IMG/VR virus record: IMGVR_UViG_3300043435_000891
Coordinates: 1-42,180 of that record
Source: a virus
Direction: 5' to 3' (one strand)
DNA length: 42,180 nucleotides
Shown here: one piece after another, positions 11,708-42,180 of the stretch
Position numbering within the stretch: the first letter of the stretch is position 1
How the letters are laid out: the number at the start of each line of letters is the position of its first letter
Made by a program: the position numbers and the translations under genes
Notes under the pieces: generated by a model
Told to the model about the DNA's origin: nothing
Database searches by the model: none
What the model saw: the letters and a program-made list of their open reading frames with translations, nothing else

Positions 11708-13848
11708 AAATTATACAAGTTAATCTGGGTTTATTGCCTATTCCACCCAATGGATGGGGAGCGGTTGAAAAAATTATTTGGGATTACTACCAGCTTCTAA
11801 ATAATAAAGGATTGGATTGTCAAATAAAATATTTGAATGAAATTCATTATGCGGATGACACAATTGTACACGTCCACGTAGCAAATCTTGCGAACGAATG
11901 TCATAAACGTGGTATACCGTATATCTTTAGTTTACACGATCACCATTCTTATTTATATGGTAAAGAGTCAGATGTATATAAAGAAAACCTTCAAGCTATT
12001 GAGAACAGTGTACTATCAACATGTCCAGCCAAATATTTGGTTGATTATTTTGGCAGTAAGAAATTACGTTACTTTTCTCACGCGGTTAACACAGATGTAT
12101 TCGTGTGCAAAAATAATAAAAACGATGTAAATAAATTGTTATGCGTTGCAAATAATGGTTATGCGAATAATCAATCTTATGACAGAAAGGGATTTGTATA
12201 CGCAATTAAAGTTGCTAAAGAATTAGGATATCCAATTACAATTGCTGGTCCATCAAATAATAAAAAGTTCTTTGATCATTTAGATTCTGAATTAAATAAT
12301 TACGATAAATTAACCAAGCTATTTGATTTAACGGAGGAACAATTAATTAATTTATACAATGATCATTCTATATTTTTACACCCATCTGAATTAGAAGCCG
12401 GACATCCCAATTTAACTTTGTTAGAAGCAATGAGTTGTGGTTTACCTGTAGTAGGTACATTTGAAGAAAAATCATATAACGGTATGATTGTAGTTGATCG
12501 CAATGTAGAACAAATCAAGTCTGCTGTACAAACGATAACTAGTGATTATGACACGTATAAAAATAAAGCACTTCAATCCGCAAACGAAAATTCTTACTTC
12601 AATCGCGTGCATCAATTAATTGATTTATATGATCACTATACCGAAAGATTATTCGCCATTCGTCATATTAATGTTTATGAAAATATAAAAAAGAATGAAC
12701 AAAGTATTAAAACAAAAGCTATATTTAAATATACGTTCAATGACGCAGCTAAGATAGAAGTAGACAATCCATTGGATACAGATCAAAGTTTCCACGTCAC
12801 ATTCTATAATAGTGACGACGACACGATTAAGTACGAAACTGATTTAAAACATAATTGGTGGGGAAGTTGTAATTTTACATATTACATTCCTTATGAAATT
12901 CATATTAAAGATAATAAGACAAATGAATTGGTAGAAACTTATAAATTTAATTTAAAGAATAAAAAGGTATTGATTGAATATGAAAGTTTTTCTTTAGGCG
13001 ATCAATTAGCTTGGATGCCTATCATAGAACAATTCAGAAAGAAACACGAATGCGATCTTTACGTAAAATTGCCTTTAAAAAATATTTTTGAGAAAAAATA
13101 TCCTAAAATTAAGTTTATTGACAATAACAAATTTGTATCGGATGTATTCGCTACTTACAAATTGGGATATTATGTTGACGAAAATGGAGCAAACAATGAT
13201 AGATGTAAATCTGATCCTAGAAAACAACCACTGCAAAAAATAGCAAGTGATTATTTGGGATTGCCATATGAACCAGAGTCGCCTTTGATTGATTTTAAAA
13301 TCAAAGAACGACCACTAAAGAAAAGATATGTTACTATCGCAACACAAAGTACCTGTCAAGCCAAATATTGGAATAATAAAGGCGGATGGGAAAAAGTAAT
13401 CGAGTATCTTAAATCCAAAGATTTTGAAGTAATTTGTATCGATAAACATAAAGTATTTGGTAATGGCCGGGATTGTGTCAACAATATGCCATCAAATGCG
13501 TTAGATTATACAGGAGATAAACCACTTGTGGATCGTATGAATCAGATACACCACAGCGAATTCTTTATTGGTTTACCATCTGGCTTATCTTGGTTAGCTT
13601 GGGCAGTTAAAAAGCCAGTTGTACTTATTAGTGGGTTTTCTTATCCATATGCTGAATTTGAAACTCCATATAGAGTGCAAAATCACTCAGTATGTACAGG
13701 ATGTTGGAATGATTCTTTATTTGATAAGGGAAATTGGAAATGGTGTCCAAAATCAGATAAAAAAGAAGAATTTGAATGTACCAAAGAAATAACCCCAAAG
13801 ATGGTTATTGATGTTATCGATCAATTATTAATAGAACAAAAAATTTAA
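11704..13848 (+). CDS. GT4 glycosyltransferase fused to autotransporter-type protein O-heptosyltransferase
   Basis: Residues 1-~310 are a GT4 domain: Gly-rich loop NGWGAVEKI and the E-x7-E donor motif ELEAGHPNLTLLEAMSCG. Residues ~330-714 resemble the bacterial strand-loop-strand autotransporter O-heptosyltransferases (TibC/Aah type): a small beta-rich segment, then ESFSLGDQLAWMPIIEQFRK, AKYWNNKGGWEKVIEYL, GLPSGLSWLAWAVKKPVVLI, and a C-terminal four-cysteine cluster CTGCWND...WCP...FECT at Cys664, 667, 681 and 692. In TibC a comparable cysteine cluster binds iron. These enzymes put heptose on serines of secreted adhesins. Finding one in a phage, fused to a second transferase, suggests O-glycosylation of a virion or host-surface protein. 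The family call is strong; sugar and acceptor are unknown. Confidence 0.85.
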   Translation: MKIIQVNLGLLPIPPNGWGAVEKIIWDYYQLLNNKGLDCQIKYLNEIHYADDTIVHVHVANLANECHKRGIPYIFSLHDHHSYLYGKESDVYKENLQAIENSVLSTCPAKYLVDYFGSKKLRYFSHAVNTDVFVCKNNKNDVNKLLCVANNGYANNQSYDRKGFVYAIKVAKELGYPITIAGPSNNKKFFDHLDSELNNYDKLTKLFDLTEEQLINLYNDHSIFLHPSELEAGHPNLTLLEAMSCGLPVVGTFEEKSYNGMIVVDRNVEQIKSAVQTITSDYDTYKNKALQSANENSYFNRVHQLIDLYDHYTERLFAIRHINVYENIKKNEQSIKTKAIFKYTFNDAAKIEVDNPLDTDQSFHVTFYNSDDDTIKYETDLKHNWWGSCNFTYYIPYEIHIKDNKTNELVETYKFNLKNKKVLIEYESFSLGDQLAWMPIIEQFRKKHECDLYVKLPLKNIFEKKYPKIKFIDNNKFVSDVFATYKLGYYVDENGANNDRCKSDPRKQPLQKIASDYLGLPYEPESPLIDFKIKERPLKKRYVTIATQSTCQAKYWNNKGGWEKVIEYLKSKDFEVICIDKHKVFGNGRDCVNNMPSNALDYTGDKPLVDRMNQIHHSEFFIGLPSGLSWLAWAVKKPVVLISGFSYPYAEFETPYRVQNHSVCTGCWNDSLFDKGNWKWCPKSDKKEEFECTKEITPKMVIDVIDQLLIEQKI

Positions 13849-26673: not shown

Positions 26674-27096
26674 ATGAAATTAAAACATTTACTGGAAAAC
26701 TCTACGGAATCGACTTATGTCGCTTTGACCAAAGAAGAAAAATCAAAAATGGTCGGGGTTATTAAATCTTACAACGAATATCGTAAAGGATTAAAAGCTG
26801 ATAGTGTCTATGAAACAGCACAAAAAATTATGGAAGCTGTTAATTTAGCAGAACGATATGCTATTAAAGAATGTAACGAATGGATGGAAGCTAAAATGGT
26901 GGAACGTGATATGAAAGAAATCAAACGTGATGCCGCTAAGATGTACGAAGAAGCACAAAAGATGAAAGCTATTGAACAACAACTTGAAATGTTGTATGAA
27001 CAAGTTGGTATGAGATTGGAACGTTATTTTGAGATCGCAGATTCAATGAATGAAAATCCACAAACAACCAATGTTAGTACTAACGCATCGGTATAG
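26674..27096 (+). CDS. Small helical prohead core-type protein (140 aa)
   Basis: A 140-residue, almost entirely helical and charged protein beginning MKLKHLLENSTES. The N-terminus matches the putative capsid-targeting pattern. The remainder is coiled-coil-like (KEIKRDAAKMYEEAQKM). It follows the prohead protease directly, where T4 keeps small core proteins such as gp67 and gp68, so a core or internal protein is likely. Its 3' end overlaps the opposing gene by 17 bases, and its transcript probably ends at the hairpin at 27163-27194 inside that gene. No direct homology to gp67 or gp68 can be claimed. Confidence 0.7.
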   Translation: MKLKHLLENSTESTYVALTKEEKSKMVGVIKSYNEYRKGLKADSVYETAQKIMEAVNLAERYAIKECNEWMEAKMVERDMKEIKRDAAKMYEEAQKMKAIEQQLEMLYEQVGMRLERYFEIADSMNENPQTTNVSTNASV

Positions 27097-27538
27097 AATC
27101 GATAAATTCCAACATCGAGATAAACGATTCAAAAACATATTTTCTATTTGATTCTAATACATAACCTTCGTCTGTTTTATAGACGAAGGTTTTTCTCTTT
27201 TCATTAACCATATCTAAAGAGGGAACTTCTACTTCAGAGAACATTCTGTACTCGTCATCTATACGAAAATCCATTTCGCCTAACAAATCTATCTCCATAA
27301 AATTCCATCCATTTGGATTATCTATATCTTCAAGTTTGTACATTTTTTCTTCTTCAAAATTATCATTATTTATAAAGTTAATTAATTTTGGCGATTTGTA
27401 CTTGTTATAACTATTATTCATTTCACGTACATCGGGATTTGAATAAGCGTTTTCTTCGCCAGTTCTTTTTATGAACTTATAATTATCTTTTTTAGAATTC
27501 ATATGTTTAGAAAAATTGGGATTAAAATTATAGGCCAT
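27080..27538 (-). CDS. Hypothetical accessory protein (152 aa)
   Basis: A polar, acidic 152-residue protein without membrane segments or cysteines; not recognised. It is on the minus strand between two plus-strand head-gene groups, in an accessory pair with the gene at 27528-28121, which overlaps it by 11 bases. The stop overlaps the end of the convergent core gene by 17 bases. Part of its coding sequence (codons for TFVYKTDEG) forms a terminator hairpin for the opposite strand. Confidence 0.65.
   Translation of the reverse strand: MAYNFNPNFSKHMNSKKDNYKFIKRTGEENAYSNPDVREMNNSYNKYKSPKLINFINNDNFEEEKMYKLEDIDNPNGWNFMEIDLLGEMDFRIDDEYRMFSEVEVPSLDMVNEKRKTFVYKTDEGYVLESNRKYVFESFISMLEFIDSIPMR
27163..27194 (+). 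terminator. Rho-independent terminator inside an opposing gene
   Basis: A perfect 11-bp stem (AACCTTCGTCT at 27163-27173; AGACGAAGGTT at 27181-27191) with a seven-base loop is followed by a T-rich run on the plus strand (from 27190: TTTTT, C, T, C, TTTT). It lies 67 bases after the plus-strand core gene but within the coding sequence of the minus-strand gene 27080-27538. Confidence 0.85.
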
Positions 27539-28121
27539 AAGAGTTAATTCTATCTATAAAGTCTGCTAACGAACTTGTTTGTTCACTATCTTTGTTTTTA
27601 TCTACACCGGTACTCAACATACTAAATATTTCTTTTTCTGGTCGATCAGGATAGGTTCTTTGTACAAAACAAGCATAAACAATTAAATTTTCATTTTTTT
27701 GATCTATTAATTTTTTAAACACATACTTTTTTGTACTACCGTTACTGAATATTTCGGTTTGTATCTGTGTGTTTTCCGGCGCATTTGGAATAAAATTGGT
27801 TTTGCCAAATCCGCTAAATCCATTTTGCTTATTTTGAAATATCAACATTTCTTTTTTGACAAATGGAACTCCTTCGTTTTCTTTCAACACTTGATTAAAA
27901 GATTTTCCTTTGATAATGTCAAAATCACTCAGTGAATACTCAGACTCTTTGAGACTTTTCAATATTTCTTTTAGTTTGGTAAAATCTTTAACGCTACTTG
28001 GTTTTATAGTACTAGCCATTGTACGTACTGTTGAAGATACTTTTCCAGGTTTAATTTTTCCTTTTTGTAAGGCTCGTACTAATCTGAATAGTCTCGCTTG
28101 CTTTTCACTTTGTGCTGGCAT
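27528..28121 (-). CDS. DUF3008-like N-terminal domain protein (197 aa)
   Basis: The N-terminus (MPAQSEKQARLFRLVRALQK, then KVSSTVRTMASTIKPSSVKDF) resembles the small DUF3008-type proteins found in many phages, which begin MPAxSxKQ and end in a Lys/Asp-rich helix. Residues beyond ~60 form a further domain I do not recognise. An ATATTTAT box lies six bases upstream of its ATG on the minus strand. It leads the two-gene accessory unit and overlaps the next gene by 11 bases. Function unknown. Confidence 0.6.
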   Translation of the reverse strand: MPAQSEKQARLFRLVRALQKGKIKPGKVSSTVRTMASTIKPSSVKDFTKLKEILKSLKESEYSLSDFDIIKGKSFNQVLKENEGVPFVKKEMLIFQNKQNGFSGFGKTNFIPNAPENTQIQTEIFSNGSTKKYVFKKLIDQKNENLIVYACFVQRTYPDRPEKEIFSMLSTGVDKNKDSEQTSSLADFIDRINSYGL

Positions 28122-29421: not shown

Positions 29422-31260
29422 ATGAGTATGGATATTAAAAGTCTATTGACAAACAATATGAATCCACAGGCCAAATTAATGGCAGAAACACGTGGACTAC
29501 AAGGCAAATGGGAAAAGACAGGCCTCCTAGAAGGTTGCAAAGGTGTTGAAAAAGCACATATGTCAATCCTATTAGAAAATCAAGCAAAACAATTGCTTGA
29601 CGAAGCAACCACAACTGGTACATCTACCAGTTCAGAACAATGGGCTGGCGTAGCTCTTCCATTGGTTCGTCGTGTGTTTGCTGAAATCGCTGCGAAGGAA
29701 TTCGTAAGCGTTCAACCAATGAATCTACCATCTGGTCTAATCTTCTATCTAGACTTCAAGTATGGTACTAACGCTCCTGGTTCAGATTTGCGCAACTTGA
29801 ACAACGGTAGTTCTGTAACTACCCGCGCCGGTAAGCAATTGAACGACAGTTTGTTTGGTGGTACAGGCAAGAAATTGGGTTCAACTGATAGCGCAGTACG
29901 TGGTTTATACGGCCAAGGTGCTTTTGCATATTCAGTTCGTCCAGTAAGTAGTTCCGCTATTACAATCACGTATTCATCAGGAGCAACCAATAACGGTGGT
30001 ACAATTCAAACCGCTTCTTGGAATGACGTACAATTTGATGCTGAATTGAGTGGTTCCGTGGTAGCTAAGAAATTGTTTAAAGTAATCTTGAATCACGATG
30101 ATAATAATACCCCTGTATCAAGTTACGGAAATCTATACAACGTTGACTTGAATGCAGTGCGTTCATTCAACTTGATCTCAGGTTCAGGTGCGACCAATCC
30201 AGGCGCACTCATTAAAAACGGTGTGGTGTTGAACACTTACAGCAAAGCGGTCAATACTGGTAGTTTGAGCAATCCATTCTATCAAACTGTATACATCGTA
30301 TCCGCTTCACAGAGTACATTCGCTGGCGCCGCCTCCGGTCCAAGACTTAAATTGATCTATAGTCTACAACCTACGGACAACCTACGTGGTGACTTTGAAG
30401 CTGGTAAGACACCAGGTGAAGGTTCTGGTACAGCTGCTAACGTTGCTACTCAAAGCATCGACACTGATATCAGTATCCCAGAAGTTAACTTGGTACTAAA
30501 CAGCGAACCAATCGTTGCTAAGACCCGTAAACTAAAGGCAGTCTGGACCCCAGAATTAGCGCAAGACTTGAACGCATATCACTCTATTGATGCAGAAGCA
30601 GAATTGACTGCTCTGTTGAGTGAATACGTATCTATGGAAATCGATCTAGAAATCCTAGAAATGTTGAACGGTGCCGTTCAAGGTATAACTACCGAAGCTT
30701 GGTCCGCCCAAATCGGTGTTGAATTCAGCAAGGGATTGAATGCAACTACTGGTGACGCAGTATTCACACGTAATGCAAATGCTTCTGCAAATCGTACAGC
30801 TTACGTTAAGAGCACTTGGTTCCAAACTCTTGGTAACAAGATTCAAAAGGTATCTAACACAATCCAAAAATTGACCCTCCGTGGTGGTGCTAACTTCTTG
30901 GTCGTAAGTCCAGACGTAGCAACCATCTTGGAATCAATTCCAGGATATGTAGTAAACACCGATGGTGACAGTGCTAAGTTCGCAATGGGCGTTGCACGTG
31001 TTGGTAGCTTCGCAAGTCGCTTCCAAGTTTACAAGAACCCATATATGACCGATAATATCGTATTGGTTGGTTTCCGTGGAAATAACTTCCTAGAAACAGG
31101 CGCAGTATATGCTCCTTATATCCCACTAATCCAAACTCCATTGGTCTATGATCCAGTGAACTTCACTCCACGTAGAGGTGTAATGACCCGCTACGCTAAG
31201 AAGGTCGTGCGCCCAGAGTTCTATGGAAAAGTTATTATCGGTGATCTCGATACCGTATAA
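29422..31260 (+). CDS. Major capsid protein (gp23-like)
   Basis: The 612-residue protein is a T4-type capsid subunit. The N-terminal region up to Glu61 (QAKQLLDE, then ATTTG) matches the removable propeptide of gp23, which in T4 is cut after Glu65. The following segments VALPLVRRVFAEIAAKEFVS and VQPMNLPSGLIFYLD are typical, as is the C-terminal PYIPLIQTPLVYDPVNFTPR, MTRYAKK. The protein is longer than gp23 (521). An AAAGAAAG site precedes the ATG, and a strong bidirectional-type terminator follows. Scaffold and capsid genes are separated by only 53 bases without a recognisable terminator, so they may be co-transcribed. Confidence 0.95.
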   Translation: MSMDIKSLLTNNMNPQAKLMAETRGLQGKWEKTGLLEGCKGVEKAHMSILLENQAKQLLDEATTTGTSTSSEQWAGVALPLVRRVFAEIAAKEFVSVQPMNLPSGLIFYLDFKYGTNAPGSDLRNLNNGSSVTTRAGKQLNDSLFGGTGKKLGSTDSAVRGLYGQGAFAYSVRPVSSSAITITYSSGATNNGGTIQTASWNDVQFDAELSGSVVAKKLFKVILNHDDNNTPVSSYGNLYNVDLNAVRSFNLISGSGATNPGALIKNGVVLNTYSKAVNTGSLSNPFYQTVYIVSASQSTFAGAASGPRLKLIYSLQPTDNLRGDFEAGKTPGEGSGTAANVATQSIDTDISIPEVNLVLNSEPIVAKTRKLKAVWTPELAQDLNAYHSIDAEAELTALLSEYVSMEIDLEILEMLNGAVQGITTEAWSAQIGVEFSKGLNATTGDAVFTRNANASANRTAYVKSTWFQTLGNKIQKVSNTIQKLTLRGGANFLVVSPDVATILESIPGYVVNTDGDSAKFAMGVARVGSFASRFQVYKNPYMTDNIVLVGFRGNNFLETGAVYAPYIPLIQTPLVYDPVNFTPRRGVMTRYAKKVVRPEFYGKVIIGDLDTV

Positions 31261-31285
31261 TACTTAGTAGAAATAAAATAACTCA

Positions 31286-31313
31286 AAAACCCCAACGAAA
31301 GTTGGGGTTTTTT
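31286..31313 (+). terminator. Rho-independent terminator after the capsid gene, probably bidirectional
   Basis: A perfect 11-bp stem (AAAACCCCAAC at 31286-31296, GTTGGGGTTTT at 31301-31311) closes a GAAA tetraloop, with T run 31308-31313. The A tract at the left end would give a U tract on the other strand, so it could serve the convergent Mom-like gene too. It is built like the sheath terminator. Confidence 0.95.
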
Positions 31314-31319
31314 CTTGCA

Positions 31320-32093
31320 CTAATCGAAAAATTCGTTGGTATTTTCTACAACGATTTCTTGCACTTCTTCTTTGAACGAAGTATCTTTGGGATAAGGTAG
31401 AACTTTATGTTTAAGAGATTTAACCAGTTTCTTATTTTCTATCTTGTTGCTTATAAACTTGATATAACGATGTTTACCGCTTTCACGTTTGCGCCAAAAT
31501 GTTCTACCAATACGTTCTTTTAGTTTATCTACACTGTGTGTTTTCCAACGTGCATATACACTTCTACTATGTATCCAATCATATTCAGTGGGGCCAATTA
31601 AACTAACACTATAGTTAGGCATCAGTGCAATATCCACATAGTTATCACCTTGATATACAAATCCAGTTGCTTGATATATTGTTCCAACGTGACCAGCTTC
31701 ACTATCCGCGTAACTAAGAATACATTTTATTTGTGGATAATCTGTGTTTAATAATCTAAAACTTTCAGCTATACAATAGCTTTCTATATTTTTACCATAA
31801 CCATCTGCAATCCACAGTCGTGTTAATTCCAACACATTGTTATTAGTAAGTAGAGGACATATGCTGGTACTTGCATTTCTACCCACGGCATTTCCATATA
31901 CTAATACACCTATTAGGCGTTCGTTAAAACCACCAAAGAATGTGCTTTCAATATACTCTTTATAATAAACTCCATAAGCTACAGTACAAAGAGACCATTT
32001 GTGTGTATAATGGTTTTTTTCAATAAGAGTTTTTGCAACATTCTTATTGATACTTTTGAGATAAAGCAATGAGGTATCACAATATTCGGACAT
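31320..32093 (-). CDS. Mom-like DNA modification protein (GNAT-like fold)
   Basis: The 257-residue protein resembles phage Mu Mom-type adenine-modification proteins, a GNAT-like family: an N-terminal helix with KTLIEKNHYTHKW (residues ~21-33), a strand LIGVLVYGNAVGR, then NVLELTRLWIADG (86-98), and the strongest segment, SYADSEAGHVGTIYQATGF (127-145). In Mu, Mom changes adenines to a carbamoylmethyl form and blocks restriction. The last ~90 residues are basic and may bind DNA. It faces the capsid gene across a terminator and ends a minus-strand island. It could instead be a plain acetyltransferase-like protein, but the SYAD/IYQATGF part favours Mom. Confidence 0.65.
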   Translation of the reverse strand: MSEYCDTSLLYLKSINKNVAKTLIEKNHYTHKWSLCTVAYGVYYKEYIESTFFGGFNERLIGVLVYGNAVGRNASTSICPLLTNNNVLELTRLWIADGYGKNIESYCIAESFRLLNTDYPQIKCILSYADSEAGHVGTIYQATGFVYQGDNYVDIALMPNYSVSLIGPTEYDWIHSRSVYARWKTHSVDKLKERIGRTFWRKRESGKHRYIKFISNKIENKKLVKSLKHKVLPYPKDTSFKEEVQEIVVENTNEFFD

Positions 32094-32130
32094 TCCCCCA
32101 TTATAAACCTATAATAAAGAATGTCAACAT

Positions 32131-32343
32131 TTATATTAAATAAAACAAGCCTTTTGAATTATAAACTACAATTCTGATCTTGGTATCGTTATCTTTAATG
32201 ATACCGAGTTTATCTGAAATTTGAAATGGACCTGGATGATTACTTGTACGTACACCCATTACTTTATCTTTTATTTTATATACATCCAAATCTGTATTAA
32301 CAACACTTGCGTGATATTGTCTTCCCAAAGGTATCATTTTCAT
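32131..32343 (-). CDS. Small hypothetical protein coupled to the cyclase gene (70 aa)
   Basis: A 70-residue, beta-rich protein of unknown family. Its ATG overlaps the stop of the ankyrin/cyclase gene as ATGA (32340-32343), which suggests translational coupling and supports it being real. The sequence has PLGRQYHASVV, PGPFQISDKLGIIKD and IRIVVYN strands. It might bind or regulate the cyclase or its product, but nothing shows this directly. Confidence 0.55.
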   Translation of the reverse strand: MKMIPLGRQYHASVVNTDLDVYKIKDKVMGVRTSNHPGPFQISDKLGIIKDNDTKIRIVVYNSKGLFYLI

Positions 32344-34118
32344 AATGGTTTATTTGTTGTTGGTTCTGCTTTTTTTACTCTACTTGATGGAAATTCTTTG
32401 TTACCAAACTCGGTACCGTGTAAACTGTACAAATGCATTATTACACCGTGTTTTACAATTACATCCCCCAAATCATTTACCAAAACGTATGCTGGTCTAT
32501 CATATTTCAACATTACAGCTGAACTAACTAATAAATGATTTGTTTCACCCGCATCCATTACTCTTTGAGCATAATTGATTCCATCACCGCTTATATTAAG
32601 ATTTCCATTGATATCTTCCATTGGAATTACAGGTCCACAGTGTACACCCATTCTCATTTGTAAGTCGGGTCTATCTTTTACTGCTTTAGCTATAGCAACG
32701 GCACAATTCATTGCATCTTCTAGATACGTGAAAAATCCCATTACCATACCATCTCCGGTGGGTAATATAATCAACTTTTCAAGAGCATTAGCTGTTTTAT
32801 ATTGCATTGTAGATTTAACTAGTGTACCCAAGTCTTTACAAGCCTTCTTTTGTTCATCTGTGGTTTTTTTACTGTAAGCCACAATATCCATAAAGAATAT
32901 GAAACCTTCTTGTTCAGTATCTAATTGTAATCGTCCTGATTTGACTTCCACGTCGATCTTGTCAACTTTACGAACTATTTGTTTAACTGGTTTTGGTACT
33001 TCAACCTTTGGTTGTTCTTCTTTCTTTTCTACAACCGGCATATTCTTTAATTTTAAAAAGTCTTTCCAGTTAATCTTTTTTGTTGGTGCATCTTTCTTTT
33101 TTGGTTCTTTTGCAGTCTGTTCTGCTTCTAGTTTCTTTATTGCTTCTTCTTCACGATTGCGTTTTTCAATGAATAACGCAATTTGTTTCTTAACTTCATC
33201 TGTAATATAAATGTTTACATCTTTACCATTACCACCCGTATCGTGTTTCTTCTTTCTTAAAGCACCTTTGGCTTGTAAATAACTTTGCATTTCTACATTG
33301 CCTGTCTTGAATGCAATGTCTAACGGAGCAATTTCTCCCTTAAAATCTGCACCATTAACATTTGCACCCAAATGTACCAAAAACTCCGTCATATCAACAT
33401 CGTTAGCATTAACGGCGTAATGTAATGGCATCCATCCATTCTTTTCATCTCTACCATTAATTTTACCGTCTTTATCAAAAAATGACTGTACACCTTCAAA
33501 ATCACCGGTTTCAGCACAAAAATGAATATTAACACCACCAGCAGATTTAGCGCCATTTTTATTTAACAACTTAACAATTTCACCTCTATTAACATTGGAT
33601 AACACATCTATTGGATTGTTTTTACCTAAGAAATCTTTCTTGTTGACATCAGCACCTTTAACAATTAAATATTCAACCAAATGTTTTTGTCCATAATTAA
33701 CCGCATAGTGTAGTGCTGTCCAACCTTTACCAGCGTCAACTTCATTGATATCTTGTTTTTTACTCAACATTTCTTCAATAGAAACAATATCACCATTCTT
33801 AGCAGCCAAATGAAAACTGCTACCACTACTATATTTTGCACCTCGACCTTGCAATAATTCTGAAATGTGTTTAAACCCTTTTTGTTCAGATATATCTAAT
33901 GCAGTATTTTTGCTTGTCCAATCTTTTACATTTACATCGGCGCCACGATTTAATAACAATTTGACTATTTCTATTTGATTTTCTTCTACTGCAACAACCA
34001 ATGGTGGATTGCCGGTATCGTCATCTCTCTGATTAACGTCTATTTTTTCTTTTTCGATGCAATTGTATACGTTATCATACAACCCTCGTTTAATGTGGGT
34101 AAAAATATTGATTGCCAT
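32340..34118 (-). CDS. Ankyrin-repeat protein fused to a class III nucleotidyl cyclase
   Basis: Residues 1-~285 of 592 hold about nine ankyrin repeats (LLLNRGADVNVKD, GWTALHYAVNYGQKHLVEYL, GWMPLHYAVNANDVDMTEFL). A Lys/Glu-rich linker follows (about 300-400). Residues ~405-575 form a class III adenylate/guanylate cyclase domain: metal-binding Asp411 in FFMDIVAYS and Asp456 in ILPTGDGMVMGFF, and transition-state residues Asn515 and Arg519 in GINYAQRVM. These catalytic residues are intact. The positions that select adenine in classical adenylate cyclases appear to be Leu and Asn, so the base used is uncertain. No membrane segment is present. It lies between an MscS-like gene (7 bases upstream) and a small coupled gene, in a minus-strand island. 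Confidence 0.85.
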   Translation of the reverse strand: MAINIFTHIKRGLYDNVYNCIEKEKIDVNQRDDDTGNPPLVVAVEENQIEIVKLLLNRGADVNVKDWTSKNTALDISEQKGFKHISELLQGRGAKYSSGSSFHLAAKNGDIVSIEEMLSKKQDINEVDAGKGWTALHYAVNYGQKHLVEYLIVKGADVNKKDFLGKNNPIDVLSNVNRGEIVKLLNKNGAKSAGGVNIHFCAETGDFEGVQSFFDKDGKINGRDEKNGWMPLHYAVNANDVDMTEFLVHLGANVNGADFKGEIAPLDIAFKTGNVEMQSYLQAKGALRKKKHDTGGNGKDVNIYITDEVKKQIALFIEKRNREEEAIKKLEAEQTAKEPKKKDAPTKKINWKDFLKLKNMPVVEKKEEQPKVEVPKPVKQIVRKVDKIDVEVKSGRLQLDTEQEGFIFFMDIVAYSKKTTDEQKKACKDLGTLVKSTMQYKTANALEKLIILPTGDGMVMGFFTYLEDAMNCAVAIAKAVKDRPDLQMRMGVHCGPVIPMEDINGNLNISGDGINYAQRVMDAGETNHLLVSSAVMLKYDRPAYVLVNDLGDVIVKHGVIMHLYSLHGTEFGNKEFPSSRVKKAEPTTNKPL

Positions 34119-34125
34119 AAGTAAA

Positions 34126-34515
34126 TTAGTCTTGTTTGTTTTCTTTTTTGAAACGAGCCAAATCCAACTGAGGTAGTGGTTTTTCTATATTTAGACCGGC
34201 CAATCTTTCATTTTGAATAACTAATTTACTGCCACCTACAACCTTACCATCTACTACATCATATATAAAGAATACCGTTTTGGTTAAACCTACACGTACA
34301 ATTCTTCCTGGTTTACCATCAACATATACAACGTCATCTTCTTTATAATCGGATCCAATAAACATAAAAAGCGCAGCTGCTAACTTTTCAATGCTTGATT
34401 TGAATATTAGAATTACTAAACCGGCTAAGAACATCCAGACATATTTGCCTGTCATATCTTGCGCTGTTGATTCTAATACTTTTTCTGAAATTACTTGTAC
34501 AGTATTTGTGTCCAT
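34126..34515 (-). CDS. Small MscS-like membrane protein
   Basis: The 129-residue protein has one clear membrane segment (WMFLAGLVILIF, ~28-42), then an amphipathic helix (SSIEKLAAALFMFIGS) and a small beta domain (DDVVYVDGKPGRIVRVGLTK, TVFF, GSKLVIQNERLAGLNI). This order matches the pore helix TM3 and the beta domain of MscS mechanosensitive channels, reduced to the core; MscS itself has about 286 residues. It likely forms an oligomer in the inner membrane. It sits between a lipoprotein gene and the cyclase gene on the minus strand; the cyclase start follows after seven bases. A channel linked to cyclic-nucleotide signalling is a reasonable hypothesis, but no nucleotide-binding domain is visible. 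Confidence 0.65.
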   Translation of the reverse strand: MDTNTVQVISEKVLESTAQDMTGKYVWMFLAGLVILIFKSSIEKLAAALFMFIGSDYKEDDVVYVDGKPGRIVRVGLTKTVFFIYDVVDGKVVGGSKLVIQNERLAGLNIEKPLPQLDLARFKKENKQD

Positions 34516-34565
34516 ATTTGTTTTTGGTTATTTAAAACGAGTTTAACACCTAAAACAATTATATA

Positions 34566-34573
34566 ATAAATAT
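34566..34573 (-). promoter_or_regulatory. ATATTTAT box (minus) upstream of the MscS-like gene
   Basis: ATATTTAT on the minus strand lies in the 69-base gap after the lipoprotein gene, 50 bases before the MscS-like ATG. It may be a promoter for the cyclase operon. Confidence 0.4.
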
Positions 34574-34584
34574 ATTTAATTATC

Positions 34585-35550
34585 TCACTTCGTCCACTTT
34601 TGTTCTTTCAAGATATCATCAATCAAATCTTTTTCAGAGTTGTCCATTTCTTTGTCAAATCTCTTTAACACTTCGGTCAATGGATATACTCTGTCAGGAG
34701 ATTCTTTTTGCTTTTCTTTGAGTTCTTGAATTACATCAACTATCTTAGTAAGTGGGGACTTATATTCATCAACTTTGTCTTTTGAAGCAAAGTTAGATAT
34801 TTCAAATGCATGTGGAGTTAATACTTTTACCAAACTTAATAGTCCGGATCCGATCATATTGAATATACTAAATACTGCACCAGCTGCTGGATGTACTGTT
34901 GCTAATATTCTAAGTATAACGAATACTACAACAAATATGATAATTGCGGTTAAAGCACTAATAAAGAACTTTTTTAAACCCCAAAATACAGCATTTAATC
35001 CAAACATACCACTCATTGTATCAAGTGTAGCCTTGCTTTGATCTGCTTCTTTTGCAATTTCTTTTGCTTTATCAGTCATTTGCCAAAGTTCATCATCATA
35101 CTTTTCTTTTAAAGCAGACTTTTCTTTTTGTAATTTGTTTATGATTTCGTCCCGTTGTGATAATAATTGATCACCTTTTTTTCGTTCTTCAGCTACTTGA
35201 GAATTAAGCAGATCAACTGTAGCTTTAATTCTTTTAATTTCATCTATGTGTGGAGAACCAACGATAGAAATTACTCGTTCATTCAAAGATTTAGCTGTTT
35301 CTACTTGTATAGGCGCATTAGTTACTTGACTTAACGAATGTTGAATACCAATTGATAAAGAAGAAGTTTGTACTATTTTACCTTTTTCTACTTTTTCCAA
35401 TTCTACCATTGTATTGTCTACTTTGGCTTCTTGTTTTGCAACGGCATCTTGTGCCACACTAACTTGCTTTGCTGATTTAACCTCTGATGAAATACATCCA
35501 GTTAATATCAAAATTACAATAGTATAAAACAGTTGCTTTTTAAAGTTCAT
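34585..35550 (-). CDS. Lipoprotein with coiled coil and internal membrane segments
   Basis: The 321-residue protein starts with a signal sequence and lipobox (VILILTGC, Cys19). A long charged, coiled-coil region follows (about 25-190), then a hydrophobic region with one or two membrane segments (AIIIFVVVFVILRILATV, then FNMIGSGLLSLV; about 195-240) and a charged C-terminal domain of about 80 residues. A lipid anchor plus membrane segments in one chain could tie two membranes together, somewhat like a unimolecular spanin, but the large C-terminal domain is not spanin-like. It is the first gene of the minus-strand cyclase unit. Function not recognised. Confidence 0.75.
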   Translation of the reverse strand: MNFKKQLFYTIVILILTGCISSEVKSAKQVSVAQDAVAKQEAKVDNTMVELEKVEKGKIVQTSSLSIGIQHSLSQVTNAPIQVETAKSLNERVISIVGSPHIDEIKRIKATVDLLNSQVAEERKKGDQLLSQRDEIINKLQKEKSALKEKYDDELWQMTDKAKEIAKEADQSKATLDTMSGMFGLNAVFWGLKKFFISALTAIIIFVVVFVILRILATVHPAAGAVFSIFNMIGSGLLSLVKVLTPHAFEISNFASKDKVDEYKSPLTKIVDVIQELKEKQKESPDRVYPLTEVLKRFDKEMDNSEKDLIDDILKEQKWTK

Positions 35551-35591: not shown

Positions 35592-35660
35592 ACTCAAAGA
35601 AAAGTATAACCGTGTAATAAAAGGTAACGGCAGTTGAAAAGTAAGAATAACAAAACACAT

Positions 35661-36890
35661 ATGAAATTAATCGATTTGCTAACCGAAGTTAAAATGTATG
35701 AAAGTCTAGGATTACCAGCATCGGCTGTACAGTCATTAGATTCATTTGTTGCACAAGAATTAGACGAAGCTGATATGTTAGGCGCTGGCACCACAGAATT
35801 GCCATCCGATGAATTACAAGGATATTTAGACAGATCGGCCGGTCAACCTGCAGTTTATAAGAAAACTGGATTGCCTAAATTGGATAAAAAAGGTAAACAA
35901 AAGTATACTACTACAAAAGATCCAACTGATAAATTCAAGTATCCATATGTACATCCAAAGCTTGCCAGAGAGATACAAATTGTAGATCCAAGTGGCCGTA
36001 GGTTTGATTTAAACAAACTAAAAACCCATATCACCACACGTCCTGATAAGATTTTAAAACAAAATGAAAAAATTTCACACAGTGGCGGTGAAAGTACTCA
36101 GTTTTATAATATAGGATTGCCAGCTTTACAAGGACTTGGTTATGACGAAAAGAATCAAAAATTTGTTATCATAAATACGTGTCCAGGCGCAGGTGCATGC
36201 AAAGTTTATTGTTATGCTAAAAAAGGCGGTTATGTACAATATGTACCAGTTAACACATCGCAAACAAGACAACTTAACTTTTTGTTGAACGATCCGGATG
36301 GTTATAAAAATATGTTATCAAACGAAATTCGTGCAGCAGTTGAAAAAAATTCAAAGAAAAATGTAAAAACTGTGATTAGATGGCATGATTCAGGCGATTT
36401 CTTTAGTCCTGATTATGTAAACCTAGCATATAGTGTTGCAAAAACATTTCCCAACGTAGACTTTTATGCTTATACTAAAATGGCAGATGTGGCTAAAGGT
36501 GATAAACCAGTCAATTTCAAGATGAATTTTAGTGCGGGTGCAAAACCTGATCAAGAAAAACAAGTCGATTTTAAAACAACTAAACATTCAACTGTAGTAC
36601 CAAAGCAAATGTTTGCTGATTTAGTTGATAGAGAAGAAGTACCAGATCCAGATAAGCCAAATAAAACAATTAAAAAGTTGGTTTATAAATCCCCATCCGC
36701 TATTGATATTTTAAAGAAAAAGTTAGCATTAAAGTATAATGTTTCTGAAGACAGTGTCATTACCTACGATGAAATGATGAAAATTCCTGTGGGAGATAAA
36801 CCAAAGTGGAATGTTATAGTTAAACCAGGTGACGGCGACGATAGTGCAAATAGAGCAGATGTAGTGGGTACTTGGTTATTAATCCACTAA
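35661..36890 (+). CDS. GP88-like cysteine-cluster protein with putative capsid-targeting peptide
   Basis: I place the start at the ATG at 35661 (409 residues), because it gives MKLIDLLTEV, matching the targeting-peptide pattern; a TTG at 35634 is in frame but unlikely. The centre has NTCPGAGACKVYCYAKKGGY with Cys174, 180 and 184 (C-x5-C-x3-C), then VIRWHDSGDFFSPDYVNLAY and VDFYAYTKM. This matches the phage 'gene product 88' family, thought to be related to radical SAM proteins, though the cysteine spacing differs from the classical C-x3-C-x2-C. The C-terminal part is charged. Reaction and substrate are unknown. It stands just before the neck genes and has its own upstream box. Confidence 0.7.
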   Translation: MKLIDLLTEVKMYESLGLPASAVQSLDSFVAQELDEADMLGAGTTELPSDELQGYLDRSAGQPAVYKKTGLPKLDKKGKQKYTTTKDPTDKFKYPYVHPKLAREIQIVDPSGRRFDLNKLKTHITTRPDKILKQNEKISHSGGESTQFYNIGLPALQGLGYDEKNQKFVIINTCPGAGACKVYCYAKKGGYVQYVPVNTSQTRQLNFLLNDPDGYKNMLSNEIRAAVEKNSKKNVKTVIRWHDSGDFFSPDYVNLAYSVAKTFPNVDFYAYTKMADVAKGDKPVNFKMNFSAGAKPDQEKQVDFKTTKHSTVVPKQMFADLVDREEVPDPDKPNKTIKKLVYKSPSAIDILKKKLALKYNVSEDSVITYDEMMKIPVGDKPKWNVIVKPGDGDDSANRADVVGTWLLIH

Positions 36891-40191: not shown

Positions 40192-42180
40192 ATGTCAACA
40201 TTGAAGAAAGATCCATGTGAAGTTTCTCCATTAAAATTGGACAATGCTTTGTATGACTACAAAAAATTAACAGCGACTTTTAAAGATCCTACTACACCAC
40301 TGTTTCTTAAAATAATCGAAGAATTACGTGTTATTATTAATTGTAATGCCAATTTACAAAAAAATACACAGTCTATACAAGAATTTCCATGTGATTCAAA
40401 AACAGATACATGGGTATATAATCATAATTTAAATTCGGAATTTGTATTGTTCATTGTATATGATCAAGATTTAAATCAAATAATACCTGAAAGCATAACT
40501 TTAAACAATAAAAACACAGCCACAATAAAATTCTCATTTCCTGCATGTGGTTATGTTTTTGCTATAGGTAGTAATGTAAGTACAAGTGGTATATCTGGCA
40601 CAGGCACAAGTGGTAGTAGCGGTCAAAGTGGATCTAACGGAACAAGCGGAACAAGCGGAACAAGCGGTACTAGCGGAACTAGTGGCGAAAGCGCATTAAG
40701 TGGTACTAGTGCTACTAGTGGTAGTAGTGGTGAAAAAGGTTCATCTGGATCAAGTGGTACTAGCGGAACGAGTGGATTTAGCGGAACGAGCGGAACTAAC
40801 GGAACTAACGGAACAAGTGGTACAAATGGAACTAGTGGATCTAGTGGTACAAGTGGATCCAGTGGTACAAGTGGAAGTAGTGGTAGTAGTGGATCTAGCG
40901 GATCTAGTGGTACAAGTGGTACAAGTGGTACAAGTGGCGAAAGTGGAACTAGTGGTACAAGCGGATCTAGTGGTACTAGCGGATCAAGTGGAACCAGTGG
41001 ATCTAGTGGATCTAGTGGATCTAGTGGTACAAGCGGATCTAGTGGAACCAGTGGAACTAGTGGAAGTAGTGGAAGTAGTGGAACCAGTGGAACTAGTGGA
41101 AGTAGTGGAACCAGTGGAACCAGTGGAACTAGTGGAAGTAGTGGATCAAGTGGAACCAGCGGAAGTAGTGGATCTAGTGGATCTAGTGGTACAAGTGGAA
41201 CAAGTGGAAGTAGTGGTGAAAGTGGTACCAGCGGAAGTAGTGGATCCAGTGGATCTAGTGGTAGTAGTGGATCTAGTGGATCTAGCGGAACTAGTGGTAC
41301 AAGTGGATCTAGCGAATCAAGTGGATCTAGTGGATCAAGTGGTACTAACGGAAGTAGTGGATCTAGCGGTACTAGTGGTGAAAGTGGTACTAGTGGTGAA
41401 AGTGGATCTAGTGGCGAAAGTGGATCTAGTGGTGAAAGTGGTACTAGTGGTGAAAGTGGTACTAGTGGTGAAAGTGGTACTAGTGGTACCAGCGGATCTA
41501 GCGGAACTAGTGGATCAAGTGGAACCAGTGGATCTAGTGGTACAAGTGGTACAAGTGGATCCAGTGGAACCAGCGGATCAAGTGGATCCAGTGGAACTAG
41601 CGGATCAAGTGGATCCAGTGGAACTAGCGGATCAAGTGGATCAAGTGGTACAAGTGGATCAAGTGGTACAAGTGGATCAAGTGGTACAAGTGGATCAAGT
41701 GGTACAAGTGGTACAAGTGGTACAAGTGGTGAAAGTGGTACAAGTGGATCAAGTGGATCAAGTGGTACAAGTGGTACAAGTGGTACAAGTGGTACAAGTG
41801 GATCAAGTGGATCAAGTGGATCTAGCGGATCAAGTGGTACAAGTGGATCTAGCGGATCAAGTGGTACAAGTGGTTTAAGTGGAAGTAGTGGTACAAGCGG
41901 ATCTAGTGGTACAAGCGGATCTAGTGGTACAAGCGGATCTAGTGGTACAAGCGGATCTAGTGGTACAAGCGGATCTAGTGATACAAGCGGATCTAGTGGT
42001 ACAAGCGGAACAAGTGGATCTAGCGGAACTAGTGGTACAAGTGGTACAAGTGGATCTAGCGGAACTAGTGGTACAAGTGGTACAAGTGGTACAAGTGGAT
42101 CTAGCGGAACTAGTGGTACAAGTGGTACAAGTGGATCTAGCGGAAGTAGTGGATCTAGCGGATCCAGTGGTACAAGTGGA
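40192..42180 (+). CDS. Collagen-like Gly-Thr-Ser/Gly-Ser-Ser repeat protein (3'-truncated)
   Basis: From the ATG at 40192 the frame stays open for 663 codons to the window end. Residues 1-~125 form a globular N-terminal domain (starting MSTLKKDPCEV; contains DTWVYNHNLNSEFVLFIVYD and a strand IKFSFPACGYVFAIG), probably the virion-attachment part. From about residue 133 the protein is Gly-X-Y with X mostly Thr or Ser (some Glu, Asn, Gln) and Y nearly always Ser, and no proline. Phage collagen-like repeats form trimeric fibre shafts. Without proline a stable triple helix is less certain. The Ser/Thr-rich face would be a natural O-glycosylation target. A long frame on the same strand, offset by one base, is a shadow of the repeat. 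Confidence 0.9.
   Translation, partial: MSTLKKDPCEVSPLKLDNALYDYKKLTATFKDPTTPLFLKIIEELRVIINCNANLQKNTQSIQEFPCDSKTDTWVYNHNLNSEFVLFIVYDQDLNQIIPESITLNNKNTATIKFSFPACGYVFAIGSNVSTSGISGTGTSGSSGQSGSNGTSGTSGTSGTSGTSGESALSGTSATSGSSGEKGSSGSSGTSGTSGFSGTSGTNGTNGTSGTNGTSGSSGTSGSSGTSGSSGSSGSSGSSGTSGTSGTSGESGTSGTSGSSGTSGSSGTSGSSGSSGSSGTSGSSGTSGTSGSSGSSGTSGTSGSSGTSGTSGTSGSSGSSGTSGSSGSSGSSGTSGTSGSSGESGTSGSSGSSGSSGSSGSSGSSGTSGTSGSSESSGSSGSSGTNGSSGSSGTSGESGTSGESGSSGESGSSGESGTSGESGTSGESGTSGTSGSSGTSGSSGTSGSSGTSGTSGSSGTSGSSGSSGTSGSSGSSGTSGSSGSSGTSGSSGTSGSSGTSGSSGTSGTSGTSGESGTSGSSGSSGTSGTSGTSGTSGSSGSSGSSGSSGTSGSSGSSGTSGLSGSSGTSGSSGTSGSSGTSGSSGTSGSSGTSGSSDTSGSSGTSGTSGSSGTSGTSGTSGSSGTSGTSGTSGTSGSSGTSGTSGTSGSSGSSGSSGSSGTSG
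40585..42180 (+). repeat. Degenerate 9-base tandem repeat array (Gly-X-Ser coding)
   Basis: About 1.6 kb of tandem units of the form GGN-NNN-AGY, mainly GGTACAAGT, GGATCTAGT, GGATCAAGT and GGAACTAGT, continuing past the window end. It encodes the Gly-X-Y shaft. The array changes character along its length: GAA-containing units cluster around 41370-41480, and TCA-containing units around 41575-41830. This suggests local slippage or unequal exchange. Confidence 0.95.

What the first reader, a model, noticed from the sequence alone, without database searches (positions are those of the whole stretch)
32131..35550. Minus-strand island with ankyrin-cyclase fusion, MscS-like pore protein and lipoprotein
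Four consecutive minus-strand genes sit inside the plus-strand head/neck block: lipoprotein with membrane segments, small MscS-like protein, ankyrin/class III cyclase with intact metal and transition-state residues, and a 70-residue protein coupled by ATGA. A cyclic-nucleotide synthase next to a membrane pore protein resembles the logic of Pycsar-type defence (cyclase plus membrane effector), but no nucleotide-binding domain is visible in the membrane proteins. The ankyrin part could sense a host or competing-phage protein and switch on the cyclase. It may be a superinfection-exclusion or host-takeover module. To my knowledge this gene combination is not a described phage system.
Basis: partly seen in the sequence, partly recalled or inferred. 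Interest (0 to 1): 0.9.

Follow-up and report, generated by a model that had tools for sequence, protein, structure and literature searches.

The report
Phage cyclase and membrane-channel signalling cassette
Large freshwater bacterial viruses carry a swappable block of genes that pairs an enzyme for making a cyclic-nucleotide signal with a tiny channel-like membrane protein, suggesting that they run their own chemical signalling inside the infected cell.

Summary
The island is real: four minus-strand genes (lipoprotein, 129-aa MscS-like protein, ankyrin + class III cyclase, 70-aa protein) in the head/neck block of a T4-like phage, followed by a Mom-like gene. The cyclase domain is firmly class III by fold (Z about 19) and keeps both metal aspartates and the Asn/Arg pair in 15 of 15 aligned rows; its substrate-selecting positions are Leu/Asn, so the product is unknown. 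MscS kinship is probable but weak. In 102 locus representatives the MscS-like gene is followed by a class III cyclase in 66 of 66 loci with room, and the ankyrin-cyclase has it upstream in 64 of 64 with room; a distant phage (L189) lacks it. The lipoprotein is separable. Some loci lack MscS-cyclase-p70 as a block; others add a sensor-type cyclase and an HD protein. A Verrucomicrobiales chromosome carries a 68-70% identical ankyrin-cyclase, without the MscS-like gene. Best reading: an exchangeable phage second-messenger cassette whose cyclase works with a minimal membrane channel. The logic resembles Pycsar, but no cyclic-nucleotide-binding domain was found in the four proteins or in 18 related records. 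Function is untested.

The parts
34585..35550 (-). 321-aa lipoprotein; helical-looking middle (by eye), membrane stretch and about 75-residue tail; first gene of the unit; separable from the rest
   Evidence: ORF; lipobox and hydropathy; alignment A3; found without the other genes
35494..35505 (-). lipobox LTGC (residues 16-19)
   Evidence: Cys19 invariant in 23 of 23 rows of A3
34861..34992 (-). main membrane stretch of the lipoprotein (residues 187-230, peak 3.17)
   Evidence: hydropathy scan
34126..34515 (-). 129-aa minimal MscS-like protein (pore-helix-like region plus beta-domain, no C-terminal cage domain)
   Evidence: Pfam MS_channel_2nd E 0.044, below cut-off; profile A2 finds a canonical bacterial MscS at 1e-4; Foldseek top rows MSL10/MscS; model pLDDT only 56; no PDB profile hit
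32340..34118 (-). 592-aa ankyrin + class III nucleotidyl cyclase
33249..34118 (-). ankyrin-repeat part (about residues 1-290)
   Evidence: Pfam; dN/dS 0.039-0.079 in six pairs
32421..32918 (-). class III cyclase domain (about residues 401-566); D411, D456 metal, N515, R519 transition state
   Evidence: AF2 pLDDT 86, pTM 0.85; Foldseek 1ybt 1.8e-9; Z 19.1 to Rv1264
32131..32343 (-). 70-aa protein, 4-base overlap (ATGA) with the cyclase gene; fastest-evolving whole gene of the four
32136..34557 (-). approximate block (MscS-like, cyclase, 70-aa gene) absent from the otherwise similar allele in L078
   Evidence: junction compared by eye; ends good to about 10 bases
31320..32093 (-). neighbour: Mom-like DNA-modification protein, separate transcription likely
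   Evidence: PF25680 1.8e-44; PHROG 1384
32100..32127 (-). sigma70-type promoter-like site (12 of 12) ahead of the Mom-like gene
   Evidence: consensus match only, and promoter-like sites in the region are no more numerous than in shuffles (27 against 26.7)
31285..31312 (-). terminator-like hairpin at the end of the minus-strand run

Best explanation
The island is one allele of an exchangeable phage signalling cassette. Shown: the ankyrin-cyclase is a conserved class III cyclase with intact catalytic residues; in this phage group it is kept together with a small MscS-like membrane protein; sister cassettes add a two-membrane-stretch sensor-type class III cyclase and an HD-domain protein. Inferred: a protein partner met in the infected cell binds the ankyrin repeats and sets cyclase activity; the enzyme makes a cyclic mononucleotide (base unknown); this signal, or the cyclase itself, controls an oligomeric pore made of the MscS-like protein in the inner membrane. 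The 70-aa protein would be a co-translated regulator and the HD protein, where present, the signal-degrading enzyme. The outcome would be a phage-timed change of host membrane permeability or turgor, most plausibly tied to lysis timing or to excluding other phages. The lipoprotein is a separate envelope protein that often shares the transcription unit.
For: MscS-like gene followed by a class III cyclase in 66 of 66 loci with room (59 of 66 within 21 bases, measured between BLAST hits; 4 more loci end within 45 bases of it); ankyrin-cyclase has it upstream in 64 of 64 loci with room (6 cut; distant L189 lacks it); sensor cyclase has it in 8 of 8 not cut before that point. Among 74 informative lipoprotein loci 57 have both and 17 neither, 0 discordant; Fisher p 1.9e-8 at 98% and 7.8e-4 at 80% clustering, where 3 of 10 clusters are mixed. 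Where the ankyrin-cyclase is missing (L123, L220) the MscS-like gene sits with the sensor cyclase. MscS-cyclase-p70 is absent as a block in L078 and in L297 and L298. Sensor cyclase Guanylate_cyc 2.8e-27, two membrane stretches, Lys/Thr at the substrate positions by eye. Purifying selection on cyclase, MscS-like protein and lipoprotein. Cyclase fold.
Against: No cyclic-nucleotide-binding domain in the MscS-like protein or in 18 related records, so how a signal would reach the pore is unexplained. MscS kinship is below Pfam's cut-off, the PDB profile search found none, the model is poor (pLDDT 56), and in the structural realignment a myosin domain ranks above MSL10 (Z 6.4 against 5.8). The genome of the bacterial orthologue has no match to the MscS-like or lipoprotein profiles, and the distant phage L189 has no MscS-like gene, so the cyclase can exist without it. 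One contig (L011/L117) carries lipoprotein and MscS-cyclase at separate places. Loci of one phage group are not independent. No activity, expression or phenotype data exist.
Confidence: 0.45

Rival explanations
1. Host-signalling mimic: the phage captured a host-type ankyrin-cyclase to raise or redirect a cyclic nucleotide that the host's own receptors read, reprogramming metabolism; the MscS-like protein is an osmotic helper, not an effector of the signal.
For: Chromosomal orthologue in a Verrucomicrobiales MAG, 68-70% identical over the full length to the group's phage copies, in a contig whose LigA is verrucomicrobial; related cyclase domains in other genomes of the phylum; slow evolution of the ankyrin part; no receptor domain PF00027 in 18 related records.
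Against: Does not explain why, in loci with room, the MscS-like gene is never without a cyclase. The close orthologue was seen in 1 of 288 phylum genomes and 1 of 50 family genomes; direction of transfer is unresolved; the host of these phages is not established.
Confidence: 0.27
2. Superinfection exclusion or anti-phage defence carried by the phage: ankyrin repeats sense a competing phage, the cyclase fires and the membrane protein kills or seals the cell (Pycsar-like logic).
For: Cyclase plus membrane protein; cassette is swapped and absent as a block in some relatives; L183 carries a strongly diverged cassette in the same head context (to the window: MCP 89%, cyclase 70%, lipoprotein 65%).
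Against: Ankyrin part under strong purifying selection (dN/dS 0.04-0.08), unlike a sensor in an arms race; PADLOC gave only ankyrin-type matches for the cyclase; no cNMP-binding or TIR domain.
Confidence: 0.13
3. Lysis-timing module: the lipoprotein (lipobox, helical-looking middle, inner-membrane stretch) acts like a unimolecular spanin and the MscS-like protein like a pinholin; the cyclase sets timing.
For: Lipoprotein architecture; some relatives have small proteins after the lipoprotein: one with three hydrophobic stretches and one weakly XhlA-like (E 0.012-0.031, below cut-off); the Melnitz paper proposed that a phage pore regulates lysis (PMC9004378, passages).
Against: No endolysin was sought; lipoprotein stands without the other genes in 17 of 74 informative loci; spanin likeness is recalled, not tested.
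Confidence: 0.08
4. Accidental neighbours: accessory genes gathered in a recombination slot without joint function.
For: The stretch between lipoprotein and Mom-like gene holds variable cargo, and genes that read like homing endonucleases sit near by in relatives (by eye).
Against: MscS-cyclase concordance in 74 of 74 informative lipoprotein loci, short spacing in 59 of 66 loci, same pair in other genomic settings (L046, L115, L011, and L051 with two genes between).
Confidence: 0.07

Closest known systems
Pycsar (pyrimidine cyclase PycC + PycTM or PycTIR)
   Same: Class III-type cyclase next to a membrane protein; two-gene logic of signal maker and membrane effector.
   Different: No cNMP-binding or TIR domain here; cyclase fused to ankyrin repeats; carried by phages; product unknown; substrate positions Leu/Asn. 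Source: passages of PMC11224242.
Adenylate cyclase in pelagiphage curli (T8SS) clusters
   Same: Class III cyclase in an accessory cluster with sensor proteins in phages; HTVC008M and Melnitz are among 9 phage records hit by the sensor cyclase of L029, at 37% and 35% identity over 44% of the query.
   Different: There linked to CsgG/CsgF, histidine kinase and FecR; here to an MscS-like protein and a lipoprotein. The ankyrin-cyclase itself matched 11 phage records, in its ankyrin part only. Source: abstract and passages of PMC9599517.
Other viral class III cyclase domains (BFVD)
   Same: 8 predicted viral structures match the cyclase domain at E 1e-3 or better, one from an uncultured Caudovirales phage (COG4252 sensor, 1.4e-6).
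   Different: Low identity (12-20%), mostly giant viruses; not ankyrin-fused as far as their names tell.
bCNG channels (MscS superfamily with a cyclic-nucleotide-binding domain)
   Same: Would link cyclic nucleotides to an MscS-type pore.
   Different: The 129-aa protein ends after the beta-domain and has no cNMP-binding domain. Known here only from reference titles in PMC4560390 and recall.
Cyclase-TPR proteins of two Verrucomicrobiota genomes (G014, G167)
   Same: Closest cyclase-domain kin found besides the orthologue (E down to 3.6e-49); same Leu/Asn substrate positions by eye in the four read.
   Different: N-terminal cyclase with TolB/TPR-like remainder (named by eye, not scanned) instead of N-terminal ankyrin repeats; from bacterial genome assemblies.
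Panoptes (mCpol + 2TMbeta)
   Same: Nucleotide cyclase paired with a small membrane protein.
   Different: Different cyclase superfamily and signal; known from search listing and recall only.

Membership tests
Class III nucleotidyl cyclase | Class III cyclase fold | tested here: met
   Pfam over cut-off; AF2 pLDDT 86; Foldseek 1.8e-9 to 1ybt; Z 19.1, rmsd 2.9, 156 aligned to Rv1264
Class III nucleotidyl cyclase | Two metal-binding Asp and transition-state Asn/Arg | tested here: met
   D411, D456, N515, R519 in 15 of 15 rows; also in L135 and L189. Roles of the positions recalled
Class III nucleotidyl cyclase | Canonical substrate pair (Lys with Asp or Thr for ATP, Glu/Cys for GTP) | tested here: not met
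   Positions read by eye as L452 and N508; motif recalled. Activity is not excluded
Pycsar | Class III-type cyclase | tested here: met
Pycsar | cUMP or cCMP as product | not testable with these tools
   needs an enzyme assay
Pycsar | Adjacent receptor with cyclic-nucleotide-binding domain plus membrane or TIR part | tested here: not met
   Pfam on the four proteins; PF00027 in 0 of 18 related phage records, some of them fragments; control positive in 11 of 14 genomes
Pycsar | Match to PADLOC Pycsar models | tested here: inconclusive
   only ankyrin-type models matched the cyclase, but I did not verify that the library holds Pycsar models
MscS channel superfamily | Pore helix plus beta-domain | tested here: inconclusive
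   PF00924 E 0.013-0.044, below cut-off, in 4 of 4 members tested; profile hit to a canonical MscS at 1e-4, in 1 of 288 genomes; Foldseek top rows MSL10/MscS, best E 6.6e-3; no PDB profile hit; low-confidence model; VIA-align Z 5.8
MscS channel superfamily | C-terminal cage domain and extra membrane helices | tested here: not met
   129 aa, no PF21082 match, one hydrophobic region at residues 20-53
bCNG channel | Cyclic-nucleotide-binding domain fused to MscS pore | tested here: not met
Pelagiphage T8SS cyclase cluster | CsgG/CsgF neighbours | tested here: inconclusive
   none among 8 + 10 window proteins and 10 accessory proteins of relatives scanned with Pfam; not every gene was scanned
Unimolecular spanin | Lipobox, periplasmic helical part, membrane stretch, lytic function | tested here: inconclusive
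   lipobox and membrane stretch present, helical part by eye; function not testable; definition recalled

The most novel reading that the evidence does not exclude
These phages carry a complete, mix-and-match second-messenger circuit of their own (soluble and membrane sensor cyclases, an HD hydrolase that removes the signal, a minimal MscS-type pore that answers it), used to change host membrane permeability at a chosen moment of infection. It would be a virus-coded cyclic-nucleotide-to-channel pathway of a kind for which I found no description.
Probability: 0.28. Interest if true: 0.87.

Novelty: new variant of a known kind. Interest (0 to 1): 0.64.

Why it matters
Cyclic-nucleotide signalling in phage biology is known mainly as bacterial defence that phages try to blunt. 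Here phages appear to own cyclases, paired with a membrane protein and traded as cassettes. If active, it gives a testable case of viral second-messenger signalling in bacteria, a minimal MscS-type pore as possible effector, and a clue to how these freshwater T4-like phages control the envelope of uncultured hosts.

Tried and rejected
Pycsar membership: rejected for lack of a cNMP-binding or TIR receptor; PycC entries were not among the 50 rows shown by VIA-align, which excludes nothing.

T4-like late promoter TATAAATA: 18 in the window against 9.2 expected, one 42 bases before the lipoprotein gene and in some relatives, but not in front of most other genes of the window; dropped.

Lipoprotein family: no Pfam, PHROG, NCBIfam or PADLOC match better than E 0.003, no PDB profile match better than 0.12. 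The 70-aa protein: nothing better than 0.025.

Origin of the cyclase: the tree places the bacterial copy with five phage rows at 84/34 support and L189 is a very long branch, so direction of transfer is left open. Host: not settled; terminase kin are Microcystis and Flavobacterium phages at 51-59%, the cyclase orthologue is verrucomicrobial.

Mel-JY01: no annotated cyclase between 1 and 37 kb, where the head genes lie; not examined further.

Counting choices: one search used 102 representatives, one per public contig as read from the listing, except that L117 is a second place on the contig of L011; it counts as a lipoprotein locus with neither gene although that contig has MscS-like gene and cyclase elsewhere. 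Further loci of the same contigs were dropped and near-identical contigs kept; contigs from one sample may be pieces of one genome (for example L039 and L217). L303 and L305, cut inside the HD gene, were not counted. Sensor-cyclase hits under 60% and ankyrin-cyclase hits under 40% identity were filtered out. In one search L189 was dropped, five loci added, and loci with under 2500 bases downstream left out (L078 among them, which also has neither gene); a mixed cluster counts in both classes. One search lists L063 as sensor cyclase without MscS-like gene, but that locus starts inside the ankyrin-cyclase. Of 88 and 108 lipoprotein stretches only the best 80 loci were returned. In one search a motif filter printed 4 of 11 loci. 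dN/dS values are pairwise Nei-Gojobori; several dS are near or above 1.
Full report
What is there. The window is a 42,180-base virus record with T4-type head genes: Gp23-like capsid protein (1.1e-72), S77-type prohead protease, and a terminase whose nearest isolates are Microcystis phage Mel-JY01 (58.5%) and Flavobacterium phages (50.7%). Between the capsid gene (29422-31260, +) and the neck genes lie five minus-strand genes: lipoprotein, MscS-like protein, ankyrin-cyclase, 70-aa protein and a Mom-like protein. The last has its own promoter-like site and a terminator-like hairpin follows it.

The cyclase. Pfam places Guanylate_cyc just over its cut-off; the best solved relative by sequence is 3mr7 (2.6e-4). 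The domain model has pLDDT 86 and pTM 0.85; Foldseek's best is Rv1900c (1ybt, 1.8e-9) and VIA-align gives Z 19.1 to Rv1264. D411, D456, N515 and R519 are invariant in 15 of 15 rows, window included. Read by eye, the positions that select ATP or GTP are Leu452 and Asn508, so the product cannot be called. dN/dS of the cyclase domain is 0.028-0.040 in five pairs (the sixth has dS 0.02), of the ankyrin part 0.039-0.079, of the MscS-like gene 0.052-0.100, of the lipoprotein 0.062-0.175 in four pairs, of the 70-aa gene 0.06-0.60 in five, and of the cyclase's last 26 residues 0.18-0.62. Several dS values are near or above 1.

The MscS-like protein. Evidence for kinship is threefold and each line is weak: Pfam beta-domain E 0.013-0.044 in 4 of 4 members tested, all below cut-off; a profile of 16 rows finds one protein in 1 of 288 genomes at 1e-4, and this is a canonical MscS, though other MscS proteins did not ring; Foldseek's top rows for a low-confidence model are MSL10 and MscS, E 6.6e-3. 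Against: no PDB profile hit, and VIA-align ranks a myosin domain above MSL10 (Z 6.4 against 5.8). It lacks the cage domain and any recognised nucleotide-binding domain.

The lipoprotein. It has a lipobox with Cys19 invariant in 23 of 23 rows, a helical-looking middle (by eye) and a membrane stretch, no known family, and no match in the phage collection or in 288 Verrucomicrobiota genomes (an empty answer without a positive control).

Linkage. Scans of IMG/VR gave 67 loci with the ankyrin-cyclase and 80 kept with the lipoprotein. In 102 representatives the MscS-like gene is followed by a class III cyclase in 66 of 66 loci with room, 59 within 21 bases between BLAST hits; four more end within 45 bases. 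These 70 equal the 70 loci that a separate scan for the MscS-like gene returned. The ankyrin-cyclase has the MscS-like gene upstream in 64 of 64 with room; six are cut; L189, another phage with a 42% identical protein, lacks it. Of 74 lipoprotein loci with enough sequence downstream, 57 have both and 17 neither. These loci share ancestry, so the Fisher values (1.9e-8 to 7.8e-4 by clustering level) overstate independence. One contig holds lipoprotein (L117) and MscS-like gene with cyclase (L011) at separate places.

Modularity. Between lipoprotein and Mom-like gene some relatives carry, besides or instead of the window's genes, a protein with two membrane stretches and a canonical class III cyclase (2.8e-27) followed by an HD-domain protein (Pfam E 0.0075, below cut-off; NCBIfam Npun_R2479 1.3e-14, far below its cut-off). 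Behind the lipoprotein in other genomic settings are a membrane-anchored PAS protein (1.3e-7), a barrel-like protein (OMP_b-brl 4e-4, below cut-off) and small membrane proteins. L123 and L220 keep the MscS-like gene with the sensor cyclase and have no ankyrin-cyclase. L011 has ankyrin-cyclase, 70-aa gene and HD protein without sensor cyclase. L078, 96% identical to the window in lipoprotein and Mom-like protein, lacks MscS-like, cyclase and 70-aa genes as one block; L297 and L298 also go straight from lipoprotein to the Mom-like gene. L183 has 89% identical capsid protein but only 70% identical cyclase and 65% lipoprotein, so cassettes are exchanged. The pair also sits away from the capsid gene in L046, L115, L011 and, with two genes between, L051; Gp23 was not found in those records, which may be fragments.

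Cellular kin. The genome scan found one bacterial orthologue, in a Verrucomicrobiales MAG: 594 aa, 68-70% identical to this group's phage copies, behind kdsB- and ligA-like genes named by eye; the LigA matches 52 of 58 genomes of the order, best full-length 68-69%. That genome has no match to the MscS-like or lipoprotein profiles. Close orthologues are rare: of 288 phylum genomes 4 match the cyclase profile at 1e-20, but only this one beyond 4e-49; 1 of 50 in the family. Direction of transfer is unresolved.

How it may work. The strongest inference is that cyclase and MscS-like protein form one functional unit. I propose that a protein partner acts on the ankyrin repeats, the cyclase makes a cyclic mononucleotide, and the MscS-like pore responds directly, through the cyclase, or through a host receptor; the HD protein, where present, would remove the signal. 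Shown: genes, fold, catalytic residues, linkage, selection, presence or absence as a block. Inferred: activation, product, gating, purpose.

What is known. Searches of the open-access library and a term search of the jumbo-phage survey PMC7824862 (MscS 0, ankyrin 0, mechanosensitive 0) showed no such phage system; most subscription papers are not held. Phage class III cyclases as such are known: pelagiphage curli clusters carry an adenylate cyclase with a histidine kinase (PMC9599517, abstract and passages); the Melnitz paper does not mention a cyclase (0 occurrences); BFVD holds a Caudovirales phage example. Pycsar shares the logic but uses a receptor that was not found here (PMC11224242, passages).

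Verdict. Real, conserved and unusual. New variant of a known kind: cyclase plus membrane partner, in a setting and composition for which I found no description.

Noticed in passing
window 31320-32093 (-): Mom-like DNA modification gene directly behind the island, with a 12-of-12 TTGACA-16-TATAAT site; 85-100% identical in the relatives shown.
   Followed up: partly
window 35634-36890 (+): GP88-like gene next to the island is highly variable between relatives (56-100%) while the neck gene behind it stays at 86-100% where matched; it too seems to be swapped.
   Followed up: no
L012:12800-13543, L015:11351-12106, L297:6835-7572: Genes that read like GIY-YIG homing endonucleases (by eye) sit between the Mom-like gene and the capsid gene in relatives; not in the window.
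   Followed up: no
L029:11379-12827 and 12829-13608: Sensor-type class III cyclase with an HD-domain protein behind it, in the same stretch as the island.
   Followed up: partly
L135:6322-8106: Chromosomal ankyrin-cyclase of a Verrucomicrobiales MAG, possible cellular source or recipient of the phage gene.
   Followed up: partly
L193, L194, L198, L203 (genomes G014, G167): Cyclase proteins with TolB/TPR-like remainder (by eye) that share the noncanonical substrate positions; 9 and 7 cyclase-profile matches in these two genomes.
   Followed up: no
window 40192-42180 (+): Very long GSSGTSG-repeat protein that runs off the window.
   Followed up: no
window 27080-28121 (-): Two further minus-strand genes inside the plus-strand head block, without Pfam match at 0.01.
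   Followed up: no
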